A stretch of 64,000 nt of DNA. Origin: Colius striatus (Eukaryota; Chordata; Aves; Coliiformes; Coliidae). The position numbers and the translations under genes are program-made. Numbering within the stretch: position 1 is the first letter of the stretch; every line of letters begins with the position of its first letter. The stretch is taken from the NCBI RefSeq assembly GCF_028858725.1, contig NC_084773.1:4578350-4642349 (forward strand), written 5' to 3'. Under the pieces are notes generated by a model. That model was not told where the DNA came from, did no database searches, and saw only the letters and a list, made by a program, of their open reading frames with translations. Below are positions 194 through 29,700 of this stretch, piece after piece.

Positions 194-4614
<4,421 letters not shown>

Positions 4615-4652: not shown

Positions 4653-4658
4653 AATAAA
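4653..4658 (+). terminator. MST1: MST1 poly(A) signal
   Basis: AATAAA lies 39 nt after the MST1 stop codon, which makes a very short 3' UTR. Cleavage would be expected around 4670-4690, where the oppositely oriented APEH-like transcript should also end. Confidence 0.85.
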
Positions 4659-4705
4659 GGCCTGGCCGTGGCCACGGGGTTTGGCACTGCACAGGGCCTC
4701 ACACA

Positions 4706-4711
4706 TTTATT
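4706..4711 (-). terminator. APEH-like poly(A) signal
   Basis: TTTATT on the plus strand reads AATAAA on the minus strand, 122 nt beyond the APEH-like stop. It faces the MST1 signal at 4653-4658, about 48 bp away, so the two 3' ends should nearly touch or overlap. Confidence 0.8.
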
Positions 4712-4832: not shown

Positions 4833-7800
4833 TTAAGGGCTGTGCCGGCCCGTCTCATCCCGCCGGGGCGGCCCCAGGTGCTGGAGGAGCCAGCGGGCAC
4901 AGTTCCCAAACACATCGGCCTCTGTCTCCACGCCAGCCAGTGCATGGCCGCCCTCCGGGTACCACAGCAGCCTGCGGGATGGGATGGGGGTGCTCAGCCA
5001 GCACCCCAGGCTTCGCTCCCCACTCCCGCCCCCCTGCACCTCACTCACCGCGCCGGCACCCCCCTGGCCCGCAGCACCCGGTACAGCTCCAGCGCCTGCG
5101 TCGGGCTGACGCGCCGGTCTCGGGCCCCCACACACAGCAGCACCGGTGTCTGCACCTGCGGCACAGCGGGTGGGTGCCCAGCCCCCTGCACCCAGCACCC
5201 TGCACCCATCCTGCCCCTGCCTTACCCGGTGTGCCTGGGCGATGGGCGAGCGCAGCAGCATGGTGGCCACGTCCTCGGCACGGGGCACCCGCTCGAAGGT
5301 GTAGGGCAGCCCCAGGGAGATGTAGCGCCTGCGGCACGGAGGCGCTGGTGGGTGCCGCGGGGACGTGGCAGGGTGGCACAGGGTGGGGGGTGGCACTCAC
5401 CAGTCCGGGATGTCGGAGGTGCCGAGCAGCGCAGGCAGGTTGCAGACGGGGCTGCGCAGGACACAGGCTCGGTAGCGCTCAGGCTCGCGGGTGAGGAGGT
5501 GGAGGGCGATGAAGGCTCCGTGGGAGCCAGCCAGCAGGGCCAGGCGGTGGGGGTCCAGGGGCTCGCTGCCCAGCGCCTGCTCCACTGCCAGCTGCGCCCA
5601 TGCAGCACCCACCATCAGCACCCAGCCAGTGGCACCCCCCAGCACCCCTGAGCCTCTTGCCCCTCACCTGGGTGTCTGCCACATCCTGCTCACCCACACG
5701 GGACAGCAAGGAGCTGATGCCAGCCTGGCCGAAGCCCAGGGAGCCACGGTAGTTCACTGAGGGGATGGAGGTTGTGGGTGCCCTGTCTCCAGAGGGGTAT
5801 GGGGGCCCAGCATCCCCTGACTCCCTGGCACTTACCCAGCAGCACGGCAAAGCCCAGCCGGCACAGTGCAGCCATGCCCGGGCGCCAGCGGGCGTCGAAG
5901 ACAGTGTGGGGGCCACCTGAGGCCAGCAGGGATGTCACTAGGGTGCCACCAGCACCGCTGGGCGATCCCTGCCAGCTCCTCACTCACCGTGGGGACACAC
6001 GACGAGAGGATGCGGGGCTGTGCCGTCCGGAGGGCTCAGCAGCAGGGCCTCGAAGGCCTGGGTACCTGTGCCAGGGAAGGGATCCTGCTCAGCACCCACC
6101 ACCCTGGGCAGCCAACACCCTGGCACCCTGCCCACCCCCTAGGGCCCCCAGGACCCAGGGGGCACCTAGGCACGACAGGGTCCCCTGGGTGCTCACCATC
6201 TGCGGCGGAACACTGCTCCCTGCAGGGTGGATGGACTGTCAGGGTCTTCCAGGTGACACCAGGCACTGTTGGGGCATCCTCCACCAGCACCCAGCGGAGA
6301 GGCAGCTCCTGGCCCGCCGGTGGCAGCAGCCCCACCACCTGCAGAGGGGCAGCGAGTAGCACCAGGTGCTGCCAGGCTGCGGTCAGCCACAGTGTGCCTG
6401 CAGTGCCAGTGCTCCAGGCTGCCATCTGTGCTGTGCCAGCCTGTGTCATGCCTGTCATGTCATGCTGGTCCTGGTCATACCGTTCCATGCCACGCCACAC
6501 TGTACCCAGCCCTGCCTTCCTGGGCCTTGCCAAGCTGTGCTGTGCTTGGCCATGCCACCCTCTGCCTTCCCACACTGGATCTGGCTGTGCCATGCTGTGC
6601 TGTGCAATACCACGCTGGGCAGTGCTGGGCCTGGCCCTACCATACTGCACCACACTGTGCCACACAGTGCAAGGGCTCTACTCACCAGGCTGGGGGGTCG
6701 GTGTGGGGCTGAGCAGGTGGCCACCAGCACGTCCCACTGGAGAGTGAGCAGCTCCCAGCACCCTTCAGGTGACCCTGAGGACAGAGAGCACATCAGCACT
6801 CATGGGTGTTCCCCGAGGCACCGCGGGCAGCCTGGTGCCACGTACCTGCCGTCAGGTTGGTGACGGTGGCTGCCTCCGTGTCCACGAGCAGCAGGTCCTG
6901 GGAGGGGGCAGAGCACCAGCAGCTGTGTCACCATGGGCTCACAGGGATCACGTCCCCGTGCCCGTGTCCCCAGGGCTCACCGTGCGGCTGCGCTGCGGAG
7001 TGCCCAGCACGGCTCGCCGGCTGTCGGCCGCCCAGCACCGTGGCGGCAGGGCTTCCCCGTACAACCCAGCAAAGGCTGGGAGCAGGACAGAGTGTGGGTG
7101 AGCTGGGCTGGGGGCTCCTGCATGCGGGGGCCCAGCCCCTCAGCGCCCAGCCCTGCCCGCTGCTCCGTGCTCACCCTCTGTGGGCTCCTGCACCACGTCC
7201 AGCACCGTCACCGTCTGCCTCGTCTGCCAGGTGAGCTGGGGAGAGCCAGTGGTCAGGGATGTGCCCCTGCCAGGGAAACTGAGGCAAGATGCTTGGGGAC
7301 TGAGCCCTGCTCCAGCCAGGCATTGCCAGAGGCTGTGACACAGTCGGCTGGGTCCCACAGCGGCAGCACAGCTGTGCCCGGCACCCACGGGGCCCTGCTC
7401 ACCATGCGCAGCCGCAGGCACTGCCGGTGGGGCCCCCCCAGGCCCCCCTCCAGGTAGAGCAGGCGGCGGCCATCAGGGCTGAGCCGGGGGCAGCAGGTGG
7501 CACCGTGCTCGGCCGACAGCAGCTCTGTGGGTGGCAGCGGGTCAGCACCCCGCGGACCCCCACGGTACCCCCCAGCCCCAGCACTCACCACAGCGCCCGC
7601 TGGCCAGGTCCAAGTGGAAAATCCCTGACCTGGAGAGGAGCTATGGGTCAGGCTGGAGCCCCACGGCCATGTTGAAGGCCATTGTGTCAACATGGCACAG
7701 GCATGCCGGCACAGCACCGGTGACCCACCTCCTGTTGGAGCAGGCTCTCAGCCCCAGGCGGAAGGGCTCATGCCACCAGCCCACAAACACCACACCGCAG

Positions 7801-9086
7801 TCATCTGGGGACCACAGGGCCTGTGAGACAGCCAGGCTTGTCCCATGGCCCCAGGCTGGCCACCCCGGGGCTCTCCCTGAACCCCGTCCTGACCTGGCCA
7901 GGAGAGAGGTGCGCCGGGATGCCCTCCAGCACTGAGACGCTGCAGCTCTCCAGGTCCAGGACACAGAGGACGGGCACGCTGCGGGTGCTCAGAGCTTCCC
8001 CCCAGTCCTCATGGTACAGGAACTGCTCACCCTGCAGCACAGCTCCATCGGCCCCCCAGCCCCCATGGGGCTCTGTGCATGGCACACTTACGGAGTATAT
8101 GGCATGCTCGGGGGGTGCACAGCACGCTCAGGGTGCACATGGCACTCACCTCCTCATCCTCGCTCTCCTCCGCCATCCTGGTTGCTCCTGGCACATCCCA
8201 GGGGCTGGGGGGCCGTGGTTTGGGGCGGCTCTTCTCAGCCACGTAGAGCAGCCGCATCTCTGAGTGGGACCAGGCCAGGCAGGCGAAGGGCCCTGGCACA
8301 GTAAGAGGGTGGCAAAGCCCAGCCGGGCACAGGCACAGCTGGGCAGGCACTGGGCTGCTGGCTGTGCCACCCTTGCCTGTGTTGCAGGCAGGTGCATGGG
8401 GCAGGAGCCTTACCCTCTGTGTAGACCTCCCCATGCTTCCCCAGTGCCGTGAGGTCTACGCTGTGGCTGCGCCCACTGCTGCCCCACACCTGGGAGACCA
8501 GGGCTCAGCACCCACCGCTGGCACTCCGGCCACCCTGGTGAGCCCCAGAGCCGCTGCGCCTGGCACAGCCCACACCTTACCTCCAGCAGCTCGTGGCACT
8601 GCCGTGGGCAGCGGCTGAGCACCACGCGGTGCTGCCCCGTGGGCGAGTCCTGGCTGAGGAGCCTGAGCGGGGGAGGGAGGGAGGCTGCAGGAGCAGCACG
8701 CTGTGCGTGGGCACCCGCCACACAGCAGGCATCGGCCGTGCCACCTCCTCCCTCAGCCCACCCGTGCCGTACTGGTTGTGGATCTCGGCGCTGAGCGCTG
8801 CCCGGCTGACGGCGAGGCCGCCATTGCCCGTGCACCGCAGGCTGTAGTGGCGGCTGAAGCGCAGGAGCCGGCGGCGCGGGGGGTCGGGGCGGCTGCACTC
8901 TGCGGGAGGCGGCCGTCAGTGGCACCGGCCCGGCACTGCGGCCCCAGCGCCGGGCGGCCCCAAGGGCAGCGACTCACCGGTGTGGAGCAAGAAGGACTGT
9001 GCCCCCAGGGTGGCCCCAAGGGCAGCGCGAGTGACGGCAGGGAACCGGCTCAGCTCCCTGTAGCAGGCGGCAGGGCCACTGGCTGC
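4833..9086 (-). CDS. Diverged tandem APEH paralogue (acylamino-acid-releasing enzyme-like), exons 2-22
   Basis: Prolyl-oligopeptidase-family peptidase related to APEH, which removes N-acylated residues from peptides in the cytosol. Exons in transcript order: 9086-8978, 8899-8773, 8662-8581, 8489-8414, 8292-8150, 8031-7894, 7820-7729, 7629-7589, 7524-7403, 7235-7175, 7075-6981, 6897-6846, 6774-6686, 6338-6197, 6065-5988, 5916-5836, 5756-5668, 5591-5401, 5328-5226, 5155-5049, 4971-4833. All phases equal those of the neighbouring APEH and the frame is open for 718 residues. Triad kept: Ser in AGSHGA (codon 5525-5523), Asp in GARDRR, His in GGHAL; the HGGP oxyanion motif is also present. The nucleophile elbow is AxSxG rather than GxSxG. 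Identity to the other copy is about 52% across the 64-residue catalytic-Ser exon (my count). The first exon is unclear. Conserved splicing and frame argue for a working gene rather than a pseudogene; whether it has peptidase activity is unknown. Confidence 0.9.
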
Positions 9087-9543
9087 CTGAGCCGGGGAAG
9101 AGACATGCTGGTGGGGGACAAGCTCATCCCTCTGTCTGTGCCCACCCTTGAAACAGGGCTGTGCCCACCCACGCAGCCCCCCTGGGCCCTCTTGCCCACC
9201 TCTGTGCCCTGCTGGGTCCCTGAGGCCATGGGGCCTTGCTCTGCTGCGCTGGGCCGCCGCCGTCTGCCGCTCGGCACTGGGCGGGCTGCCAAGGTGTGCG
9301 TGAGCTGCCTGGCACGAGGGGCCCGGCCAGTGCTAGCCCCGTGGCTGCCCCACGCTGCCACCCCACGTTGCCTGCCCCACATTGCCCACCAGGCCTGGGG
9401 CAGCCAGGCAGGGTCCACCCTCTGCTGTGGCACGGCACAAACGCCGATGCGGGAGGGAGGGAGTTCAGAGGCCATGAACAGGAGCAGCAGCGATGCTGGT
9501 GTGGGCAGCACCATGAGCCAGGGCAGGGGGCTGGGTGACACCG
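9087..9543 (-). promoter_or_regulatory. Putative first exon and promoter of the APEH-like gene
   Basis: Everything needed to start the APEH-like gene must lie here unless it is transcribed by read-through from APEH. One first exon would fit: ATG at 9475-9473 (begins MASELPPSR), 19 codons, donor AGG/GTGGAC at 9419/9418, phase 0 into exon 2 at 9086. The donor is mediocre and the peptide does not resemble the APEH N terminus, so this is only a candidate. No TATA box is seen. Confidence 0.35.
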
Positions 9544-9549
9544 TTTATT
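9544..9549 (-). terminator. APEH: APEH poly(A) signal
   Basis: TTTATT on the plus strand (AATAAA on the minus strand) starts 24 nt after the APEH stop codon at 9575-9573. The 3' UTR is therefore only a few dozen nucleotides long. Confidence 0.8.
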
Positions 9550-9572
9550 GAGGGCAGTGGGGGCAGGGGCCG

Positions 9573-12500
9573 TCAGCCCCGCAGGTGCTGCAGCAGCCAC
9601 AGCACCATGTTCATGAAGCTGTCGGCTTCGGCCTCGACGCCAGCCAGTGCGTGGTTGTTCCCTGGGTACCAAAGCAGCCTGGAGGGGACAGTGGGGTTAG
9701 CATCATACCCACAGCACCCCCCACCCCCCATCTAGGCACCCAGCACCCCACTCACCGTGTGGGGACCCTTCGGGCCTTGAGGGCACGGTAATACTCCAGC
9801 CCCTGCTTGGGGGGCACGCGCCGGTCATCCTCCCCCAGCATCAGCAGCACGGGTGCACGGACCTGCAGAGGGGCACAGACTCGGTGCTGGCACCGCCCCA
9901 GGGACAGGCACAGGGACAGGGATAGGGACATACCTGGTCGATGTAGCGCATGGGGGACTTATTCAGCATCTCTGCCCACTGGGCAGGGTCTGGGAGGGCG
10001 TCGGGTGTGTAGGGCAGCCCCGTCTCCGTCAGGCACCTGTGGGCGAGAGGCAGCGGGGTGTGTGTGGGGCCGGGGTGGTGTGGGGCCGGGGGACAGTGGC
10101 ACTCACCAGTCAGGGATGTCGGTGGTGGTCACCATGGAGGCGATGTTCACCACGGGGTTGCGGATGACGCCGGCGTGGTAGGTGTCCGGGAACTGTCCGA
10201 GGAGGTGGCACGCCAGGAAGCCCCCGTGCGAGCCGCCCACCAGTGCCACCCGGCTGGCATCCAGCGCCTCCTCCTGCAGCACTCGCTCCACGCAGAGCTG
10301 CCAGCAGCAGGGACACCCGCTGAGGCAGGCAGCCTTGCCTCCGCTCCTCGGGGGTACCCGCAGGAACACGGGGTGCCCCGGGGCCGTACCTGCACATCCA
10401 GCACGTCCTGCGTGCCCACATTGCCTGGGAGGGAGGCCACGCTGTCCTGGCCGAAGCCCAGCGAGCCACGGTAATTCACTGGGGAGAGAGCAGCATCAGA
10501 GCCTTGCCTCCCCCCATCCCTGCCCCATGGTGGGCACTGTGCTAGCCAGCAGCCCCGGTGCCCTGGCATTGCTCACCCAGCAGCACGGCGAAGCCCACGC
10601 GGCACAGTGCCGCCGGGTACAGCATCCACCCGGCCGTGAACACAGAGTGAGGACCCCCTGCAAAAGGCAAAGAGAAGGGGGGTGATGCAGCCCAGTCGGG
10701 GTGGGAGCACGGCAGAGGGCAAGCTCTTACCATGGGGCATCACGACCAGGGGAGGCTTCTGGGCAGCAGGGCCCTTGCTGGGGCGCAGCAGGATGGCATC
10801 GAAGTCCAGGCCCTCTGCAGAGGCGGAGTAGGGGGTGTCAGAGCTTGGCGGGAGGTGGCAGAGCCTGGCCCAGCCCCCCCTGGCACTCACTGTACTGGGG
10901 GTGCTCCTGCTCCGGCGGGGGCTGCAGGGTGCGGATGCCCCAGCTGATGCCCGGCACAGAGGGTGCATCCTGCAGGCAGACCCAGCGCACCTGCGCCTCC
11001 TGGCCCATGGCAGGCAGGACGGCCACGTTCTGCGTGGGGAGACACGTCAGTGACGGTGCTCGGTGGGGTGGTGGGCACTGGGGAGGGGGTGTCACCTTAC
11101 CAGCTTTGGGGGGCAATTAGGGGTGGAGAACCTGGCCACCAAGAGGTCCCGGTTGATGGTGAGGACGGACCAGCTTCCCTGGGGGGCATCTGGGGAGGCG
11201 GGTTGGTGCATCAGACCTGCAAGTGTGACCCCCTCCGAAACCCTGGCATGGCCCTGCCGGTCTGGCACTCACCAGCTGTCAGCGAGGTCGTGGCACCCGT
11301 TGCCGTATCAACCACAAACATGTCCTATGGGCAGGAGGGCAGAGTCCAGCACAGCCCTGATCTGGCTTGGCACACCACGTGCCCTCCTGCTGCCCCGGTC
11401 CCCCGTGTGCCCCCTGGTCCTCTGTGTGCCCCATGCCCCGCAGCCCTCACCTGCCGGCTGCGCTGGGCCGTGTCCAGCACCAGCCTGCGGCTGTCGGCTG
11501 CCCAGCACAGCCCCGGCAGAGCGCCGCAGTAGATGCCCGGGAAGGTGCCTGTAATGAGAGCAATGGTGCTCAGCTGCCCTCTGTGCCCCCCGTAGCCCCC
11601 CACGGCGGCACTCACCCCACCTCTGCCGCGGCACGGCCTCCAGCACCGTGCTGGTCTGCTTGGTGTACCAGTCATACTGCGGGAGACACGAGCTGGGATG
11701 AGTTTTGTGGGCTCTCATCCCGCGCAGCGCCGCTGCCCTCCCGCCAGCCCCTGCCCGGCTGTGCCTGCCAGTGCTGCTCACCATGCGCAGGCGGCCGCAC
11801 TGCTGGTGGGGGCCCAAGGCCTCGTTCTCCAGGTAGACAATGCGGCAGCGGTCGGGGCTGAGCCGCGGGGACCACACAGCCCTGGTGTCCTCAGACAGCA
11901 GCTCTGCACGGGCATGAGGGGACGGTGAGGGGCTGCGGAGAGCCGGGCTGTCGGCAGGGCAGGGGCACACGCCGCTCACCGCATTGCCCGCCCGTCAGGT
12001 CCACGTAGAAGAGAGCTGACCTGTCAGCAGAGATGGGTGTGAGACAGGGGCCGGGGGGCTGGCTGGGGGATGGGGTGTCCCATGAGGCACTCACCGGCGG
12101 TTGGTGCAGTGCCGCAGCCCCAGGCGGAAGGGCTCGTGCCACCAGCCCACAAACACCACACCGGTGTCACCGGGGGACCAGAAAGCCTGGGGGAGAGAGG
12201 GGGTGAGTGACTAAGCCCACTGTTGCCCTCCAAACTCCCCTGCTCTGCTTCCCCAGGGCTCCCCGTGCTGACCTGGCCGGGAGAGAGGTGCTCCGGGACA
12301 CCCTCCAGCACCGAGACACTGCTGCCCTCGATGTCCAGGACGCAGAGGACGGGCACACTGCGGGTGGTGAGCGTCTCGCCCCAGTCCTCGTGGTACACGA
12401 ACTGCTCACCCTGCGGCACAGCCCCATCAGCCCCACGGCTGCCTCACCAACCCCTACCTCTCCTGGGGTGAGGGGACCCCACCTTGAGGGGTGCATCCTC

Positions 12501-14365
12501 CTTCTTGGGGCACCCCACATCCTCGTCGGAAGTGCCCAGCTCAGGGGCTTTGCTCTGGAAAAAGGACTCGGCCTTGGGACGCTTCTTCTCCGCCACGTAG
12601 AGCAGGTGGGTCTCGGACTGTGACCAGGCCAGGCAGCCAAACTGGTCTGCAGGGGAGGATCAGTCCCGTCCTCCCAGGATCCCACAACCCCCCGCATCCC
12701 CTGGCCCCTCACCATCGTCGTAGACGCTGCCATGCTTGTCCAGCACCGCCAGGTCGATGCTCTTCACCTTGCGGTTCTGATCCCAGACCTGGGGGCAGAG
12801 ACACCGGTGTGGGCCTGAGCCTCAACATGGATCCAGCCCCGAATCCCATTGTGGATCCAGCTCCCCCTTCACCTCCAGGAACTGCTTCTCCTTCTCCTTC
12901 TCCTTCTCCTTGCCGGGGACCTTGCGCAGGACGGCCTTCAGTGCCCCACTGGGGGACTCCTGGCTCAGCAGCCTGCGGGCGTGTGGGCACCCGTCAGCCC
13001 CTGCCATGGGCACTTGAAGGGCAGGGGATGGGATGGGACGGGATGGGATGGGACGGGATGGGACGGGACTTACTCGTCCTTGATCTCAGAGCAGGTGCCC
13101 GTGGGCCCCGAGTAGACGATGGAGGCCCCGTCATGGAAGATCAGGTACTGGCGGCAGAACTTGATGTTCTCGGCCCGCAACAGGTCCCGCTGCGACCACT
13201 CTGCGAGGAGTGGGGTGAGGAAACCCACCATGCCCCTGCCAGGCAGGCAGAGACCCCCTGGACCCCCCTGGGCTCCCCCCCATCCCCGTACCGGTGTAGA
13301 GGCTGCAGTACTTGCCCCCGTACTGGGTGGTGACGTCGGGGCCGAGGCAGGCGGTGCTGAGCCCGGGGTGCCCGCTCAGCTCCCGGTACAGCTCCACCAT
13401 CTCCTCCACGTTTGGCAGCACCTGCGGGACGTGTTGGGGTGGCTGTGGGCACGGGGCTGTGATCACCAGGGGGTGATCACCAGGGATTGCCAGGGCACAG
13501 GGGGCAGTTACTGGGGCACCAGGGTACATGAGAGGTATCAGTAGAGTACCCAGGACCAGATACTGGAGCACCAGGGTGGAGAGTCAGGGCAGTTTGACTG
13601 GGGCACTGGCAGCACTGCCTGGAGGTGCAGAGCCAGGGCTGGTCTGGGGTGCAGGTGGGGTATGGGGGCAGTTACTGCAGATCTGGGGCAGTGCCTGGAG
13701 CAGCTTCTGGGAACGTGCTGGGGGCACTGGGGGTGCAGAGCTGAGGCAGTTCCTGAGCATGGGGGTGGTTCCTGGGGTACAGGGGTAGTTCCCGGGCACG
13801 GGGGCAGTTCCCAGGCATGGGGGCAGTTCCTGGGCATGGAGGCAGTTCACGGGCATGGGGGCAGTTCCTGGGCACAGGGGCGGTTCCTGGGCACGGGGGC
13901 AGTTCCCGGGCATGGGGGCAGTTCCCGGGCATGGGGGCAGTTCCCGGGCATGGGGGCAGTTCCTGGGCACAGGGGCGGTTCCTGGGCACGGGGGCAGTTC
14001 CCAGGCATGGGGGCAGTTCACGGGCATGGGGGCAGTTCACGGGCATGGGGGCAGTTCACGGGCACGGGGGCGATTCCCTGGGTACATGGGCAGTTACCGG
14101 GCACAGCGGCAGTTACAGGGCATGGGGGCAGTTCCTGGGGATGGGGGCAGTTCACGGGCACGGGGGCGGCTCCCGGGTACAGGGCAGTTCCCCGGCACAG
14201 GGGCAGTTCCTGGGGCGGCTCCCGGGGCACGGGGCAGTTCCAGGGGCACAGGGGCAGTTCCTGGGCACAGGGGCAGTTCCCGAGACACGGGGGCAGTTCC
14301 CAGGGCGGGCTCCCGGGGCCGTGACGTCACCCCCCCCCCCCGCAGCCCCTCACCGGCGGCTCCAT
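9573..14365 (-). CDS. APEH: Acylaminoacyl-peptide hydrolase, complete 22-exon gene
   Basis: Cytosolic serine peptidase that releases N-acetylated amino acids from peptide N termini. Exons in transcript order: 14365-14354, 13421-13292, 13200-13074, 12972-12873, 12788-12713, 12646-12483, 12410-12273, 12186-12095, 12020-11980, 11903-11782, 11676-11616, 11548-11451, 11324-11273, 11189-11101, 11029-10891, 10814-10731, 10657-10577, 10478-10390, 10297-10107, 10036-9934, 9862-9756, 9678-9573. These total 2202 nt, or 733 residues (human 732), with every phase matching. An N-terminal beta-propeller (to ~455) precedes an alpha/beta-hydrolase domain. The triad is Ser588 (GGSHGG), Asp676 (GEDDRR) and His708 (NNHAL), one position off human 587/675/707; the oxyanion motif HGGPHS is present. 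The first coding exon is only four codons (MEPP). Residues near 120 contain a [10 protein letters not shown] run from a hexanucleotide repeat. The paralogue lies downstream on the same strand. Confidence 0.97.
12884..12912 (-). repeat. APEH: Coding hexanucleotide (GAGAAG)n in APEH exon 4
   Basis: CTTCTC units on the plus strand are repeated about four to five times inside the exon. On the coding strand they give alternating Lys-Glu between VPG and QFLEV. The frame stays intact. Length polymorphism in steps of two residues would be expected. Confidence 0.8.
13020..13070. repeat. GGGATGGGAC-type repeat in APEH intron 3
   Basis: A simple tandem array of 5- and 10-bp units (GGGAT/GGGAC) sits directly next to the donor of APEH exon 3 at 13073. 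It is G-rich on the plus strand. Confidence 0.75.
13742..14312. repeat. 19-bp G-rich minisatellite in APEH intron 1
   Basis: About 570 bp of tandem copies of a 19-bp unit close to GGGCATGGGGGCAGTTCCC, with degenerate flanking copies back to about 13650. Because 19 is not a multiple of 3, all three frames stay open as one 19-residue repeat in different phase. This explains the long spurious open frames on both strands. It lies between exon 1 (ends 14354) and exon 2 (starts 13421), close to the APEH promoter. Confidence 0.9.
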
Positions 14366-20700: not shown

Positions 20701-23700
20701 ATCATCACGTAGTTACGGGGGATGTTCTGCTCCAGGCTGGTGTAGAGGGACTCAGAAGAGAAGCTGGCCGAGGGGCCCTGCGCCACGCTGGCTCTCTCAG
20801 CCGTCCGGGCCTCGGGAGCCTTGTACTGCTCGTAGCTGCCACTTGCCGGCGCAGCGCTGAAGGTGACGTCGGGAACGGCCGAGGAGCTGGTGGCCGCACT
20901 GATGACCTCGTAGTTGGTGGGGATCTTCTGCTCCAGGTCAGCCAGCGAGGTCTGCCGTGGCTTCTGGTGCCCACTGGCCATGTCCGCCGGGCTCTGGAAG
21001 AGGGTGGGCTGTGCCGCCGGCACGGTGGCCGCCCCAGCGAAGGCGCCTGGGGCTTGGTAGGGGTTTTGGGGCCGGAAGGCTGGCTGGCCTGGGGTGCCCA
21101 GCTCCGGGTATGCAGTGCCAGGGGCCGGGAAGGCGCCAGGAGAGGCGAAGGCGGGCAGCGGGGCCGCCGGCAAGCCGTCCTGCGAGGTGCTGGCAGCGGG
21201 GTACTGGGGGGGCTGCAGGCGTGCCGGCGGGAAGGCGGCGGGGCCCTGCGGGGCAGGGTACGAGTAGGCGCTGTAGGAGGCGGCGGGGGCAGCGAAGTCA
21301 GGGTACTGCCCGGTGGGCGCGGGACGCAGGCCAGCACCGTCGTAGGCGGCGAGGCGCAGGCTGTGCAGCTCGCTGTCCGACAGGTAGTCGCGGCGGTCCC
21401 CGGGGCAGCGCAGGTAGGGGTGGTCCCGCCCGGGCCCCCGCTCCTTCAGCAGCGACTCCTTGCGCTGGGTGATGCCCAGCTCCAGGTACTTCAGCTTGGC
21501 GTCGATCTCCTTCTCCTCCTCGTCCAGCTCCGCCTGCTTCTTCCTCAGCTTGGTGGCTTCATGCTCCACCAGCTTCAGGTCGCGGTCCAGCTCCTTCAGC
21601 AGGCTGGCCTTGGTGACTGGGGCGGTGGCCTTGGGGGCCAGGCTGCTCAGGTAGAGCTGGGAGGCGGCCGGGCTGGCCAGGGGCACGTGGGGCTCCTCGG
21701 GCGGCGGGCTGGGCAGTGTCCGCTTCACCTTGCGTGCCAGTGGGCTGGACTGCAGCCCCCCCACCTGCAGAGCCAAGGGACACCGGGTCAGGGGTGCTGG
21801 TGGGTGCCCCCCCACATCCCCTCCCACCGCGGAGCTCCTCTCTTGCCCCAGGGTTGTGGCGAGGTGGGCTCTGCCCTGCACGTGTTCCCCCACGCACCGA
21901 GGAAGCGGCGTTTATGTAAAAGCGCAATAACTAGGATGGAAGTAACAGGCAGGCACTTCCCGTGAGTAATTACCGGCGGTGGCAGGCGGCCAAGTGCCGG
22001 GCGGCCGTGTGCGCGCCGCTGCCTGCCGCAAACACCGTGCTCTGTCCTCGGACGCCGGGCAGCGGGGCTCGGGGGAGCGGCTGGTGGCTGCTGCCCCAGG
22101 AATTGCCCCAGGGCTCTTCGCTGGGCACTTGGTAGCCCAAGAACACCTCAGTGCATGAGGGCAAAGGTGGGAGCACAGTGGCCTCTCCTCGGGAGAGGAC
22201 CCCTCTGGAGTAGGGGACTGCGGACTGACTGTGCCACCCAGCAGCAGCTCCCACCCACTGATGGGCTTGTGCAGCCAAGACAGCTCCAGGGCCTCTGTCC
22301 AGCTGCCAGCTCCCGTGCACGGGCCCGTGCCCACTGGCTGCCAGCTCTGGTGCATGCACCCATGCCCACCGGCTGCCGCAGGGTGCTGCCCAAACATTCA
22401 CTGCTGTAGCAGTAATGAAACCGATGTGCCCCAAGGTGCCTCCTAGGGCTGTTCCCCGAGGGAAAGGTTGTTCCCTGCCCTGACCTACCTGGGTGCCAGG
22501 GAGCAACGGGTGCTGGTACAGGGAGAATCTGTCCTTGCCGGCCTCCTCAGCGGTGGGGCTGATGGGTTTGGGGTCAGAGAGGGAGCGCTGCATGGTCTTG
22601 ATGGGGCGCGGCAGCGTCTGCTGGCGCTGGGCCGAGTCGGCGGTGAAGTGCTTCTGCGGGGGCACGTGAGCCTTGTTCAGCCGCTCGCTGGTGGCGAAGG
22701 AGGACTCCAGGAGGCGGTGGGGGGACAGAGGGGAGACGGGGGAGTAGAGCACCTGGGGAGAGCGGGGCGGCTGGCGGGTCACCAGCTGGGAGAGGGACTC
22801 CGCTGGCAGGTGGGACTGGTAGCCGATTTCCAGGGGATCGGGCTTCTTCTTCTCAAATTTGCCCAGAGTCTGCTGCCGGACGGAATGTGGGTCCAGGGGC
22901 CCCGTGCTCACCATCTGGATGTTGGTGGAGTAGGGTGGGATAGTGGTTGGCACCGTCAGCTGGGGGACCACGACACCGGGCTGTGGGGCTGGCTCTGGCT
23001 CTGTCTGGCAGGCCAGGCTCTCACCCCGCTGCGTCTTCTCCGGGGCCGAGATGTACTTCACGATCTCCACCCGGGGGTCATGGGTGGTGATGTGGATGGA
23101 GGGGGAGACGCGGAGGAGCTGGTCGGGCTCCGTCTGCACCGAGCAGTCGCTGATGGTCTGGATGCCCACACTGGCCGTGCCGCGGGACACCCCCTCTGCC
23201 TTGCCCTCGGCGCCGGCCTCGGCATGCCGCGAGGGCCGGGAGCGCCGGCGGCGCACGGGCTGCTCCCACTCCTCGCTGTCCTCCTCATCTGTCTGCACGC
23301 TGCAGTCGGCACTGCGCCGCGCCCGCCGCCGCCGCGACAGCAGGTACCGCTCCTCACCGTCCTCCTCGTCTGTCTGCACGCTGCTGTCTGCCGTCTTCCT
23401 CCCCACAAAGGCCTCCCGGGACGTCTCCTTCTCGTAGGCGTCCCGCAGCCGTGGCATCGAGTTCCTCTTCTTGATGCCCCGGCCGGGCTCCCAGGACTCC
23501 TCGGCTTGTAGCGACATGTCTGAGGCCGAGCTGCTGAGCGGCCTCTGAGGTGCAGGGTAGCGGGGGCCGGCGGGCCCCTCTGGCGGCCCCTGGCTTGGAG
23601 GGGGCCATGGCTGCCCGTTGTGCGGCAGCCCCCGCGGCGCCTCGGCGGGCCCCTCGGGCGGGCGGGCGGGGGGCTCTGCGGGCGTGGGGAAGACGGTCTT

Positions 23701-26700
23701 CTGCCGCTTCTGCTCCTCCAGCTGCTGCTGCAGCTGGTGCTGCAGCTGGTGGATGTGCTCGAGCTGGAGGCGCTGCTGGGCGAGCTGCTCCCGCTGCAGT
23801 GCCAGCTGTGCGTGCCGCTCCTCTTGCTGCTGCTGCAGCACCTGCTGCTTGATGCACTGCAGCTCCTGCAGCTCCCGCTGCACCAGCAGCTGCTCCTTCT
23901 CCCGGTGCCGCTGCAGCTCCGCGCGCTCCCGCTCCAGCTCCTCCTGCAGCCGCAGCTGCCGCAGCTTCTCCAGCTCCACACGCTCCCGCTCCAGCTGCAG
24001 CACGTGCTCCTGCTGCTTGCGCTGCCGTTCCTCCTCCCGCTCCCGCTCCTCTCGCTGAGCCCCATCTGCTGGGGGCTTGGCCACTGTGGCCACCTGCCCG
24101 CTCTCCTTGCCAGCCGCAGGTGCTGCTGGCCCTTCGGCACGGGGAGCAGCTGCCGCAGGCTCCGCTCTCTGCAAGCCACTGGCGGGGGCGGCGGGGGCTT
24201 TGGGAGCGGGAGCAGCCCCCGTGGCTGCCGCTGCCGTGGTGATGGGCTTGCCAAGGTAGACGGGTGTCTCCATCAGCGAGGCTGCCGGGGCTGGGCGGCC
24301 GGGGGCCGGGTAGCGGTAGAGGCCCTGTGCTGCCAGCGGGACACGGGGGGTGACGACGGGCAGCCTGGCCAGGCTGGCCAGGGGCACGGCCGCCATGCCG
24401 CCCGGGCCGTAGGGCCTGTACAGCCCGCGCAGCATGGGCCGCAGCACCGAGGCCGGCTGGGTGGTGATGGGCAACGTGGAGGCGATGGGCGTGTTGATGG
24501 TGGAGTAGATCATGCCGTCGGCGGCCCGTACGGTGGCAGTGGAAGGGAACATCTGCCGGACGGCGCCCAGGCGGACGCTGGGGATGTTGTACTGCGACGG
24601 GCTGCCGAAGCCCTGCCGCCCCTCCGGGAACGTGGGGTTGTACATCCCGCCAGATTTGGGGGGTGCAGGGCCCTGCTGCTGAGCCACCAGCCCACCCGCA
24701 CCCGCCGGCCCAGCGCCGGGGCCGTAGGGCAGCATGTCGGGGCCGTTGGCATGCCGGCCCCCGTATTGGTCCATGGAGTTGAGGGCGGCACACATGCGGC
24801 TGATCTCGCGAGCCGTGGTGGCACTGTAGTGGGCCAGGCTGGACTCCTGGAAGCTGGCCAGGTCCCCCCGGTGTGAGAAGCGATAGTCGGAGTAGATGTT
24901 GGAGGCTGAGCTGTACCTCCGCATGGGGAGCGGGTGGCCCAGCAGCTCTGCCGGCTGACGGAGGTCTGAGAAGGAGCCATACTGCAGTCCCTGGCCCAGG
25001 TAACCCCCCTCGGCAAAGCCCACACTGTAGGAGTGCTTCATGGTGCTGAGGTCCACAGCAGCATCGCCCGCTGGGGAGGCGAAGGGCTGATCCCCCTTTG
25101 TGGGGTAGTAGCTCATCCCGATTTCAGAGAGGTTCGTGTCTGACATTGAGGAGTAGAGGCGGCCAAAGGTGCCGGTGGGGTAAAACTTCTGCTCCTCATA
25201 GAGCGCGGGCGCCGGGGCCGGCTGCTCCCGGTAAGGGAAAGTCTCCTGCAGCTCCGGCTCTCTGCTGCCGTAGAGGACTCCACTGGCTTTCCGGCCAACT
25301 GCTGCAGCCTCCCCGGCTTTCTTCTCTGGCATCTTGGAGGTGGGGTTGAAAGTCCCAGTGCAGCTGCCGCCAAAGGGGAATTTGTAGACCACGTCACAGC
25401 AGGCCACCTGGCTCTCCGGCTTCATGCCCGTGAGGTCCAGCACGTTGGCTGGTGGCTCCTCCTTCAGCACTTTGGTCACTGGGCCGGCTGCCACCTCGTC
25501 CATCTGCACCATCATCACCTGAGACTTCTTGCCACCCAAGGCAAGGAGAGGGCTCTGGCTCTTCAGCTCCACCGGCACTGCCCGGTACAGATCTGAGCCT
25601 GGCTCTGGGGGGAAGGGCTGCGGGAGGCCGCTGCTCTGTGCCCCGCCGGGCTGTGTGAGGAGCACGTCCTTCTTCACCCCCTGGCCTGCTATGCCGTACC
25701 TCGCAAACTTGCTCTGGGGGGCAGCGGCAGGCTCGGGCTTGCCGCCAGCCACCCCGCTGGCCCTCACAGCAGCTGTCTGCACTCCCTGCTCCACCTGCTT
25801 CGCCTGAGCCAGGCACACCGGGCTCCCGGTTCCCTGCCCAAAGTCCACCCGGCTCTGGAAAGGGTCTCCGTAGATCACAGGCTGCTTGGACTGCGAGAGG
25901 AGCATGGGGGAGGCGATGGCCAGGCCGGCGGTGCTGGCTGCTGCGATGATGGCGTGTGGCTGCTCCTGGGCATTGAGGTTGATGATCAAGGGCTGGATGG
26001 CCGTGGACTGCCGGCTGGGGATTTGGTCCAAGGTCAGGCAGTACTTCCTAGCCTCGGTGGCCAGGGAGGTGAGATCCATGCCTTGGTCCGTTATGATGAT
26101 GGGGGCGGATTTGAGCGCGGTCCGTAAGTCCACGGCGTTAGTGCTCGGCACTTTGGGCCCCGGCTCGACCCGGGACGTGCCGGGGATGGAGGAGATGCGG
26201 CAGAGGGAGATGTTTTCTGCAGGGAGTGCTCCCCAGCCGTACAGCCCTGCGATGCTGTCAGCGGCTGAAGTCACGGCGGGTGCCTTCTGCGTGTGCTCCT
26301 TCACCAGCTGAGCCCTGACGTAGGCGCCCGGTGGCTGCTCCGGCTCCGGCGTCTGGGTGTAGCCATGTGCCAGCAGCTGCCGGCTCGGCCTGGTAGGGGA
26401 CGAGGCGGGAGACGTTGAGGAGCCGGAGCTGGGCGGCTTGGTTTGGCTGGCAGCATCAGCTGCCAGCGTGATCAACATGAAAGGGGCGTCCTGTGAGGAG
26501 GATTGCCGGGTCAGGCGCGGCGAGCCCGCATGGTGTGGCGTCTGCGTGCCCTGGGCCACCATGGGGGAAGAGGTGGCAGGGCCGGCAGCGGCAGTATCCT
26601 CGTAGGGGAGGAGGGGGCTGTGTGTCTGCGTGGAGAACTCTGCTGTGGCCTTTGTGGTGTGAGTGGGACTCTGCGTGGGGGAGGTGGGTGAGAGCGGAGG

Positions 26701-29700
26701 GCTGGAGCTCTTGAAGAAGGGGTACGTCTTGGGCAGCGGGGCCTTGCCGTCGCTCGCGGACGGGAGCTTCTCCCTGGCTGTCTGCACGCTGATCTCCACC
26801 ACTGCCTTGCTCCTGCCAGTGTCCTCCGTCTGGGAGCCGTAGCTGACGGTGCTCTTCACCGGAGTGTAGCTTCTGCTGGCTACAGACACGGCCTCCGGAG
26901 CTGGGGAGCTGTAGCTCCGTGGCGCACTGCCGGGGCCGCCTGCCGCAGTCGTCACTGTGTTGGCACCTTTGCCGTAAGCGTAAGGAGTAGCAGCAGCCTT
27001 GGATGCCGGGACGGGCGCTGCCGGGGTGCTCTGGAGCTTGGCTGGGTCTTGTCCTTCTTTTGCAAAGTGCTGGGTGACCCGGACATCGGGGATGGCTTTG
27101 CCCGTGCTGCTGTCAGAGCTGGCAAAGGAGACGGGGGCGGAGAGCTGCGTGGGGCTGGTGCCAGGGGTGAGCGGGCCACCGTTCTGCTTCATCAGGTCAG
27201 CGTAGGCGCTCTCGGCGTTGAGGAAGTGCTTCTCCTGGTACGTTTCCTCCTGCCCCTTCACCTTCTCTCCCTGCTCGACGGCCAGGTCGAAGGAGGACTG
27301 GTGCATCCTGGAGATGCTCTGCGAGGTCTGCAGGATCTCCTCGTACACAGCTCCCGCTTTGGGCAGGGCACTGGGGTAACTGGGCTGGGAGGGGTGTGCG
27401 GGGCCGCTGTCATACCGGTACTCCTCGGCATACTGGTACTCAAAGCCGTTCTGGCTCTCGGTGCCGCGGTAGCCAACCTGCTGGTAGCTGCCACTGTAGG
27501 AAACAGTTGGCTGGGCTTGCTGGACCTGCTGCTTCTGCATCATTTCTGCCTTCCTCATCATCTCCTCGTAGGCTTCCTCGGCGCTCTTGAGGGGCTTGCT
27601 GGCAGGCTGGCTGGGGCCGCTCTCCCCCTTCTCTGTCGGGGAATACAGTGACATGAAAGTGGGCAGGTTGTACTCGCTGCCCGACTTGTACAGCTTGGAG
27701 GTCACGGCGTCAAAGCTCTCAGCCTCTGAGTCGATGGAAGGCGAGTACTCAGAGCAGGAGGAGCGGTGCAGCTCCTCCATCTCTGCTGCCTGTCGCAGCT
27801 CCTCGGTGGGGGAGGCGTCCTCGATGGGGGAGAGGTTGCTAGGGGGGGTTTTGGAGCGCTCCCTCCTCCGCTGGGCCCTCAGCTCCTCCTTGTCACGCTT
27901 GGTCTTGCGTGCTGTGCTCCGAATGCGCTGCTGCTCCACCTCCCGCATCTTCTCCTGCTCCCGCAGCAGCTCCTCTTCCTCCCGCAGCTCCTCCTCCTCG
28001 GATGAGTCCTCGATGGTGGGCAGCAAGGGGCCGTGCGAGCGGTGGCGAGCCTTCCTCTGCTGCTTCACCTCCTCCAGCCGCTGCCGGCGGCTGGGGCTGC
28101 TGTCGCTGTCCTCCTCCAGGGATGAGATGGAGGTGGGTGAGGTGCCCGAGGTGTAGCTGGGCGTCGTGGCCGGCAGGGTGGAAGAATACTCGCCGCGGGA
28201 GCGCTCCTCGGGGGAGCCCGTCAAGCTCTCCATCTCCAGCTCGGGCTCCCGGTCCAGGCTGGTGTCTGCCTCCTGGCCCATCTCCATCTCCCGGCCGTAG
28301 CCGGTCGTGCTGTTCAGCTCAATGGTTTTGAAGCGCCGTAGCCCGCCTTGGGCCGTGCTCAAGTCATCACCCTCTGCCGCCTCCAGCTCCTTCCTCTCCT
28401 CCTTGTAGAGGCCGCCGGGGCCCTGTGGCGGGCGCCGCTTGCCCGAGGCCGGCTCTTTGCCCTTCTCTGCCTCGGCCTTCTGCCCAGCTTTGGGGATGCC
28501 GTACTTGGCGCGCCCGTAGCCTTCCTCCTCCTCCTCGAGGTTGTCCTCCTCCGCGCTCATCTCCAGGATCTGCCTCCGCATGAACTCCTCGTCACTCGCC
28601 TCTGCCTCTTGTCCCTTGGGCCGGGGGGGCACCGGGGAGAAGCCCCCCCCCTCGCTGCTGTCCTCCACGTAGTCGTGCCGCAGCTTGCTGCCGAACTCGT
28701 CCGAGGACTCGGCGCTCTCCCGCCGCTCCCGCTGGTTCTCCCACTCCATCGAGTCCTCATCCTCCTCCAGGATGTCCTCCAGCTCCTCGTCTGAGTCAAA
28801 GGCTTCAGGGGTGATGGAGAGGTACCGTGGCCGCTGCCGCTGTCGCTGCTCCTCTCGCGACTCCGGGCCGCCCTTGCCGCGCTCAGTGGGCTCTGGAGGG
28901 GTGCCTCGGCCTTCCAGGAGGGGCCGCATGCTGCTCTCCAGCTTGGTAAGCTCGGAGGGGCTGGGGGGGCTCTGCCCGGCCAGCCCAGTGCCGCTCAGCT
29001 TCTCCTCCTCCTGCTGCACCAGGCCGGTGATCTCGCTCTGCGAGCTGGAGATGCCGTCGGAGGAGTAGCCGGTGTCGCTCAGGCTCTGGGGGCTGCGGGA
29101 CAGGTCCGGGGGGTAAGGCTTGCTCCCATCCTGCGGGTGAGGGAGAGCGCAGCGTCAGACCCAGGCAGCTCCACAGCTGCTTCCCCCTGAAATCCTCCCC
29201 TGGGGAGCACACTGAAGGTCTGGGCAGTGTTGGGAGCCAGCCCAGCACAAAGGCTGGGGGCTGTCCCGTGACCTCTCTCGTCAGCAACTTGTCTGTGTGC
29301 TAACAAAGGACGGCGATGGGGTGTACTACGAGCTGGGGATGGCACAGCAAACACCCCCTGGGGTGCAGGCACTGTGGGACTCATACATGTGTTTAAAATA
29401 CTGGGCCCCATCAGTGTCATCTCCCTGATCACTAACACCAGAAAGCTGTCTAATAGTGCAATCCTTGTATTTTTACTACCCACCACTTAGGTGGCTGAGC
29501 CCCAGGCGTAAGTAAGCCTCAGGGTACTGATGCACCCCTCCCTGCCTTCTGCACTCCCCAGGCTTTTAATGAACTTGAATTTCCCTGAGAGCCCTACAAA
29601 GCAGCCTTCAGAAGCAGGGTGGTCCCCAGGATCCTCATTAGATGCCAGCAGAAATAAACAGGCCCTTCAAACTGACATTCCAGTTGGGCAGTGTGAGGGA

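What the first reader, a model, noticed from the sequence alone, without database searches (positions are those of the whole stretch)
4833..14365. Tandem, deeply diverged second APEH gene between MST1 and BSN
Human has one APEH here; this locus has two head-to-tail copies. The inner copy shares all 21 matching exons and every intron phase with the outer one, and is open throughout 2157 nt. In the 64-residue catalytic-Ser exon the copies are only about 52% identical, while the outer copy is clearly closer to human. At YRACV and GTSDIPDW the inner copy resembles human where the outer copy has changed, so the duplication looks old rather than recent. An intact but fast-evolving copy suggests a new or narrowed substrate range.
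Basis: partly seen in the sequence, partly recalled or inferred. Interest (0 to 1): 0.78.

Follow-up and report, generated by a model that had tools for sequence, protein, structure and literature searches.

The report
Bird's second, diverged APEH protease gene
This bird genome carries two intact neighbouring genes for the protein-recycling enzyme APEH, one of them old and fast-changing; a second APEH in birds was already in print, so this is mostly ordinary, with one testable hint that the second copy admits bulkier, damaged proteins.

Summary
Two head-to-tail APEH genes lie on the minus strand at 4833-14365, each with 22 coding exons, 21 of 21 GT-AG introns and identical phases. They are 52% identical (372 of 713). 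The outer copy is nearer pig APEH (476 of 724) than the inner is (341 of 706). Both keep the triad, oxyanion loop and substrate Arg-Asp pair. No third copy was found. As a pair they show strong purifying selection.

It is not new in kind. PMC4422685 (2015) reports two APEHs in chicken and an APEH-2 in zebra finch, grouped with fish APEH-2, the form that cuts oxidised proteins. The inner copy shares APEH-2's positive charge (His counted) and shorter propeller, but I had no fish sequence for a tree.

Near-saturated synonymous sites and mostly unalignable introns do suggest great age.

What may be new: two loops called gatekeepers in pig APEH are trimmed in the inner copy, while the outer copy's first carries a charged KE repeat. 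Function remains inferred.

The parts
4833..9229 (-). inner APEH gene (APEH-2-like), 22 coding exons, 728 aa
   Evidence: gene model, 21 of 21 GT-AG, open; Pfam APEH_N 113 bits and Peptidase_S9 93.8 bits
9573..14365 (-). outer APEH gene (APEH-1), 22 coding exons, 733 aa
   Evidence: gene model; Pfam APEH_N and Peptidase_S9; best PDB hit 7px8 at 1138 bits for the draft protein
9200..9229 (-). proposed first coding exon of the inner gene (MASGTQQGTE), least certain exon
   Evidence: ATG, GT donor, phase 0 as in the outer gene
5401..5591 (-). inner exon 19 with nucleophile Ser572 (AGSHGAF)
   Evidence: aligned to pig Ser587
5049..5155 (-). inner exon 21 with Asp660 and Arg662 (pig Asp675, Arg677)
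4833..4971 (-). inner exon 22 with His692 (pig His707) and a short C-terminal extension
10107..10297 (-). outer exon 19 with nucleophile Ser588 (GGSHGGF)
8581..8662 (-). inner exon 4: first gatekeeper loop (pig 110-115) shortened, pig 112-115 without counterpart; exon 18 nt shorter than outer
   Evidence: loop named in PMC12514842
8150..8292 (-). inner exon 6: second gatekeeper loop (pig 182-192) shortened, pig 188-191 without counterpart; exon 21 nt shorter than outer
   Evidence: loop named in PMC12514842
12873..12972 (-). outer exon 4: first gatekeeper loop with a KEKEKEKEK run coded by a hexanucleotide repeat (12885-12911)
7729..8031 (-). inner exons 7-8, unusually like outer exons 7-8 (64 of 77 residues), candidate old gene conversion
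12095..12410 (-). outer exons 7-8, partner of the above
4706..4711 (-). AATAAA downstream of the inner gene
9544..9549 (-). AATAAA downstream of the outer gene, about 315 bp before the inner ATG
194..4614 (+). neighbour: MST1-like kringle gene, tail to tail with the inner APEH

Best explanation
The inner gene is the avian APEH-2, an old tandem paralogue of APEH kept intact by purifying selection. It encodes an S9-family serine hydrolase with a beta-propeller lid and an alpha/beta-hydrolase domain. Shown here: both genes are intact, the mapped triad, oxyanion and substrate residues are kept in both, the inner copy evolves faster, its propeller part is shorter and its charge more positive, and two loops called gatekeepers in pig APEH are trimmed in it. 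Inferred: chemistry is unchanged (Ser572-His692-Asp660, oxyanion loop PHGGPH, Arg662-Asp609 for the acyl or P2 group). The two copies divide labour by access. The outer APEH-1 keeps long charged gates and trims small N-acyl peptides. The inner APEH-2, with shorter gates and positive surface, admits larger or oxidised polypeptides, as fish APEH-2 does. Likelihoods: second functional APEH gene about 0.95; same lineage as published avian APEH-2 about 0.85; the access model about 0.3.
For: Gene models, phases and GT-AG sites; Pfam and PDB matches; pig Pro506, loop 508-511, Ser587, His588, Asp624, Asp675, Arg677 and His707 are all identical in the inner copy (roles from PMC12514842 passages). Purifying selection on the pair: lnL -4787.89 against -4928.44 at omega = 1; only 13 of 1200 neutral runs (300 at each of four divergences) kept an open frame. 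Net charge counting His: inner +21 (+10 propeller, +13 hydrolase), outer +1, pig -4, against fish APEH-2 +14 and +16 and fish APEH-1 -1 and -9. Ser position 572 against 588, the same direction as fish 555 against 585. PMC4422685: two APEHs in chicken, APEH-2 in zebra finch; of the fish enzymes tested only APEH-2 cut oxidised BSA.
Against: No fish, chicken or finch APEH-2 sequence was available, so no tree placed the inner copy in cluster 2. Site patterns lean to inner+outer (72 against 42), and an outgroup tree of the hydrolase domain could not decide (AU 0.82, 0.27, 0.14). The positive charge vanishes if His is not counted (-5). Mammalian APEH, with both gates, is itself described as degrading oxidised proteins (PMC12514842 passages; abstract start of PMC9312705), so trimmed gates are not needed for that activity. 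Loops tolerate indels, so the trimming may be drift. The passages I saw do not say outright that the gatekeeper segments are the pore loops; I join the two. Two glycines beside the nucleophile are Ala in the inner copy (pig 585 and 590), and both bird copies have Leu at pig Thr541, where a natural variant is suspected of reducing activity. The inner start lacks the CpG-rich promoter of the outer (CpG o/e 0.46 against 0.86), so its expression may be restricted or weak.
Confidence: 0.6

Rival explanations
1. The pair arose inside the sauropsid line after the split from mammals; the inner copy only looks ancient because it evolves fast. Likeness to fish APEH-2 is convergence or long-branch attraction.
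For: 72 inner=outer against 42 inner=pig sites, P = 0.006. Synonymous identity outside exons 7-8 is still above chance: 182 of 294 against 155 expected, z 3.4. Intron 21 (z 4.2) and intron 12 (z 3.3) of 21 introns keep some likeness.
Against: The excess fades without exons 7, 8 and 22 (53 against 40, P = 0.21). Pig may be the faster line: the outgroup shares the outer state at 20 sites and the pig state at 12. A published tree groups bird and fish APEH-2. dS is at the boundary of estimation for exons 1-6 and 16-22. The residual likeness is patchy, which gene conversion would also give.
Confidence: 0.3
2. The inner copy is a decaying, relaxed gene on its way to loss, without a function of its own.
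For: Four times as many inner-only as outer-only changes (168 against 42); two changed glycines flanking the nucleophile motif (AGSHGAF against GGSHGGF); no CpG-rich start.
Against: Open frame, 21 of 21 GT-AG introns, no frameshift, mapped catalytic residues kept, omega = 1 strongly rejected for the pair. The omega test is pairwise and cannot be assigned to the inner branch alone.
Confidence: 0.1
3. The inner copy has lost peptidase work and acts as a subunit that modifies mixed tetramers with the outer copy, or as an esterase-like detoxifying hydrolase.
For: Pig and fish APEHs are tetramers (PMC12514842, PMC4422685 passages), so mixed assembly is possible in principle; pig APEH binds organophosphates and carbapenems.
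Against: Triad and mapped substrate residues are kept; nothing specific points to mixed assembly.
Confidence: 0.08

Closest known systems
Bird APEH-2 (Gallus gallus, Taeniopygia guttata) and teleost APEH-2, cluster C2 of PMC4422685
   Same: second APEH beside APEH-1; positive net charge with His counted; nucleophile nearer the N-terminus than in APEH-1. The spacing Ser+88 Asp, Ser+120 His also agrees with C. hamatus APEH-2 (555/643/675), but APEH-1 has the same spacing, so it does not discriminate
Mammalian APEH (pig, PDB 7px8)
   Same: outer copy 66% and inner copy 48% identical; triad, oxyanion loop and Arg677-Asp624 pair identical in both copies
   Different: inner lacks counterparts of pig 112-115 and 188-191; outer lengthens the first gate with a KE repeat
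Lineage-specific AARE duplications in mosses (Funariaceae) and rice (PMC9845386)
   Same: APEH/AARE family expanded by gene duplication
   Different: separate events; that paper's tree did not resolve subfamilies across kingdoms

Membership tests
APEH / acylamino-acid-releasing enzyme (peptidase family S9) | APEH_N propeller plus Peptidase_S9 domain | tested here: met
   both copies above Pfam cut-offs
APEH / acylamino-acid-releasing enzyme (peptidase family S9) | Ser-Asp-His triad, oxyanion loop, substrate Arg and its Asp partner | tested here: met
   inner S572, D660, H692, P491-H496, R662, D609; S1 pocket residues were not mapped
APEH / acylamino-acid-releasing enzyme (peptidase family S9) | N-acyl peptide hydrolysis and tetramer | not testable with these tools
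   needs protein
APEH-2 (cluster C2 of PMC4422685) | groups with fish, chicken and zebra finch APEH-2 in a tree | not testable with these tools
   no sequences of that cluster could be fetched; the genome-contig scan gave one bacterial relative and the viral-contig scan none
APEH-2 (cluster C2 of PMC4422685) | net positive charge in both domains, counted as D+E against H+K+R | tested here: met
   +10 and +13, whole +21; outer -2 and +4, whole +1; without His the inner whole is -5
APEH-2 (cluster C2 of PMC4422685) | propeller part shorter than APEH-1 | tested here: met
   Ser572 against Ser588; fish 555 against 585; the shortening is smaller here (16 against 30 residues)
APEH-2 (cluster C2 of PMC4422685) | cuts oxidised proteins | not testable with these tools
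   needs assay

The most novel reading that the evidence does not exclude
APEH-2 is an ancient vertebrate enzyme, kept in birds and fish and lost in mammals, whose switch from exopeptidase to oxidised-protein endoprotease was made by trimming the two gatekeeper loops of the tetramer, while APEH-1 in birds lengthened its gate with a repeat-coded charged run: one fold, two access rules, side by side.
Probability: 0.13. Interest if true: 0.5.

Novelty: new member of a known kind. Interest (0 to 1): 0.28.

Why it matters
Mammals are said (recalled, and in line with PMC4422685) to have one APEH, and how it handles both small acyl peptides and oxidised proteins is not settled. If birds keep two copies that split these tasks, the pair offers a natural experiment: compare two enzymes of one animal that differ at the gate loops but share the active site. 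It also warns that 'APEH' in bird data sets may mix two genes.

Tried and rejected
Assembly duplicate or haplotig: rejected, since the copies differ at 48% of residues and lie about 340 bp apart on one contig. Pseudogene: rejected on frame, splice sites and catalytic residues. Recent tandem duplication: rejected; of nine blastn hits between the two genes seven lie on one exon, alone or with some flanking intron bases, and two run through a short intron (introns 7 and 21); against shuffles 2 of 21 introns exceed z 3 (introns 12 and 21). My first wording, that introns do not align at all, was too strong and was corrected. A third copy: none found. Prokaryotic and viral scans for closer relatives: one distant Clostridiales relative (23% identity) and none. 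Tree with three prokaryotic hydrolase domains as outgroup: undecided. Biopython YN00 failed with a domain error. A bacterial-type promoter scan between the genes found nothing and is not informative here.

Literature, eight searches: APEH+birds+duplication (3 papers), APEH-1/APEH-2, 'acylamino-acid-releasing enzyme-like'+bird, acylaminoacyl-peptidase/chicken/APEH (37 papers of which 15 were listed), APEH+BSN+MST1+chicken, acylpeptide hydrolase+gene duplication+vertebrate, APEH+zebra finch, acylpeptide hydrolase/Trematomus bernacchii/oxidised proteins. One paper, PMC4422685, reports two bird APEHs. I saw no paper on the tandem arrangement, but apart from three papers I saw only titles and abstract starts. 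Opened: PMC4422685 (passages, section 28), PMC12514842 (passages), PMC9845386 (passages). The 2022 cryo-EM paper (doi 10.1039/D2SC02276A) is not held. Supplements had a cap of zero.

The coincidence of inner deletions with the gatekeeper loops was not tested statistically; loops gain and lose residues easily. The odds of the access model were lowered slightly (0.35 to 0.3, and the novel case 0.15 to 0.13) after re-reading that mammalian APEH is also described as degrading oxidised proteins.
Full report
What is there. The outer gene runs 14365 to 9573, the inner 9229 to 4833. A spliced alignment and hand-set splice sites gave 22 coding exons each, 2202 and 2187 nt. All 21 introns of each are GT-AG, all phases agree, and all exon length differences are multiples of three. 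Both proteins match Pfam APEH_N and Peptidase_S9 above cut-off, and pig APEH 7px8 is the best solved structure for both. Each gene has its own AATAAA downstream. The name BSN was not verified: the 2394-residue open frame at 21970-29154 matched no Pfam family. The whole-genome searches found no further copy: 2 of 2 APEH_N matches and 26 of 26 matches to the inner protein lie in this pair, with the tool's caveat that only the best candidates are scored. An earlier Peptidase_S9 search gave 13 matches, one of them in the window (outer exon 19) and 12 on other contigs that I did not pursue; the family is wider than APEH.

How they differ. Inner and outer are identical at 372 of 713 aligned residues, inner and pig at 341 of 706, outer and pig at 476 of 724. 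With pig as reference, 168 changes are unique to the inner copy and 42 to the outer; part of the 168 may lie on the stem of outer plus pig. Codon positions differ at 256, 202 and 337 of 713. A codon model rejects omega = 1 for the pair (lnL -4787.89 against -4928.44); dS ran to the limit of the search for the whole, for exons 1-6 and for exons 16-22, and was 0.83 for exons 7-8 and 4.0 for exons 9-15. Simpler counts give dN 0.44 and dS 0.79 (NG86), which ignores the strong GC bias (84 and 88% GC at third positions). Against each copy's own codon usage, identical codons outside exons 7-8 number 182 of 294 where 155 are expected by chance, and 44 of 60 in exons 7-8 where 33 are expected. So synonymous sites are close to saturated but not wholly, and exons 7-8 less so; four-fold sites agree at 27 of 34 there against 108 of 198 elsewhere (Fisher P = 0.008). 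Old gene conversion of exons 7-8 is the simplest reading, but strong conservation of that stretch is not excluded, and the contrast in site patterns alone is not significant (11:2 in exon 7 against 61:40, P = 0.13). Introns are mostly no more alike than shuffled ones; introns 12 (z 3.3) and 21 (z 4.2) of 21 are exceptions. Intron 21 lies between exons 21 and 22, and exon 22 has 6 inner=outer against 0 inner=pig sites, so a second converted patch is possible.

Age. Over the whole alignment, sites where inner equals pig but not outer number 42, and sites where inner equals outer but not pig number 72 (P = 0.006). Without exons 7, 8 and 22 it is 40 and 53 (P = 0.21). The outgroup test on the hydrolase domain prefers inner outside outer plus pig but rejects nothing (AU 0.82, 0.27, 0.14), and hints that pig is the faster line (20 against 12 sites). 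The best evidence of great age is the near-saturation of synonymous sites, the mostly unalignable introns, and the published tree.

What is known. PMC4422685 (passages read; section 28) states that single APEH chains were found in all organisms analysed except teleosts and Gallus gallus, which have APEH-1 and APEH-2, and that cluster 2 holds APEH-2 of teleosts, Gallus gallus and Taeniopygia guttata. In that paper's fish only APEH-2 hydrolysed oxidised BSA, and the isoforms it purified were tetramers. The same paper gives net charges: APEH-2 +16 and +14, APEH-1 -9 and -1. By the same count the inner copy is +21 (+10 propeller, +13 hydrolase), the outer +1 and pig -4; without histidine the values are -5, -16 and -20, so the sign depends on the convention while the order does not. 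The inner nucleophile is residue 572 against 588 in the outer; fish 555 against 585.

Mechanism. PMC12514842 (passages) maps the pig active site: oxyanion loop 508-511, Pro506, Ser587, His588, Asp675, His707, and Arg677 with Asp624 for the acyl or P2 group. Each of these is identical in both bird copies. Next to them, pig Gly585 and Gly590 are Ala in the inner copy, and pig Thr541 is Leu in both bird copies; the paper suspects a natural T541M variant of reducing activity. S1 pocket residues were not mapped. The same paper names gatekeeper segments 110-115 and 182-192 and says that charged flexible loops set the size of the tetramer's entrance pore; that these are the same loops is my reading. 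In the inner copy pig 112-115 and 188-191 have no counterpart; in the outer copy the first loop is longer and reads KEKEKEKEK, coded by a hexanucleotide repeat at 12885-12911. I infer that the copies differ in what may enter, not in chemistry: the outer a gated exopeptidase, the inner more open to bulky or oxidised chains.

Verdict. A correct observation of a real, functional-looking gene pair, of a kind already reported in birds. The gate-loop difference is the part worth a bench test.

Noticed in passing
window 13745-14306: First intron of the outer APEH is largely a 19-bp minisatellite (about 30 copies, 79% matches).
   Followed up: partly
window 12885-12911: A (CTTCTC)4.5 repeat inside outer exon 4 codes the KEKEKEKEK run in a gatekeeper loop, so its length may vary between individuals.
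   Followed up: partly
window 9230-9540: The stretch upstream of the inner ATG has CpG o/e 0.46, against 0.86 around the outer ATG, so the two genes may be regulated differently.
   Followed up: partly
window 4653-4711: The AATAAA of the kringle gene (+, 4653) and of the inner APEH (-, 4706) lie about 50 bp apart, so the two 3' ends nearly meet or overlap.
   Followed up: no
window 4453-4470: The protease-like domain of the kringle gene reads GDYGGP by eye (position) where an active serine protease has GDSGGP, as expected (recalled) for MST1, a non-catalytic growth factor.
   Followed up: no
window 3697-3941: 45-bp and 17-bp tandem repeats in an intron of the kringle gene.
   Followed up: no
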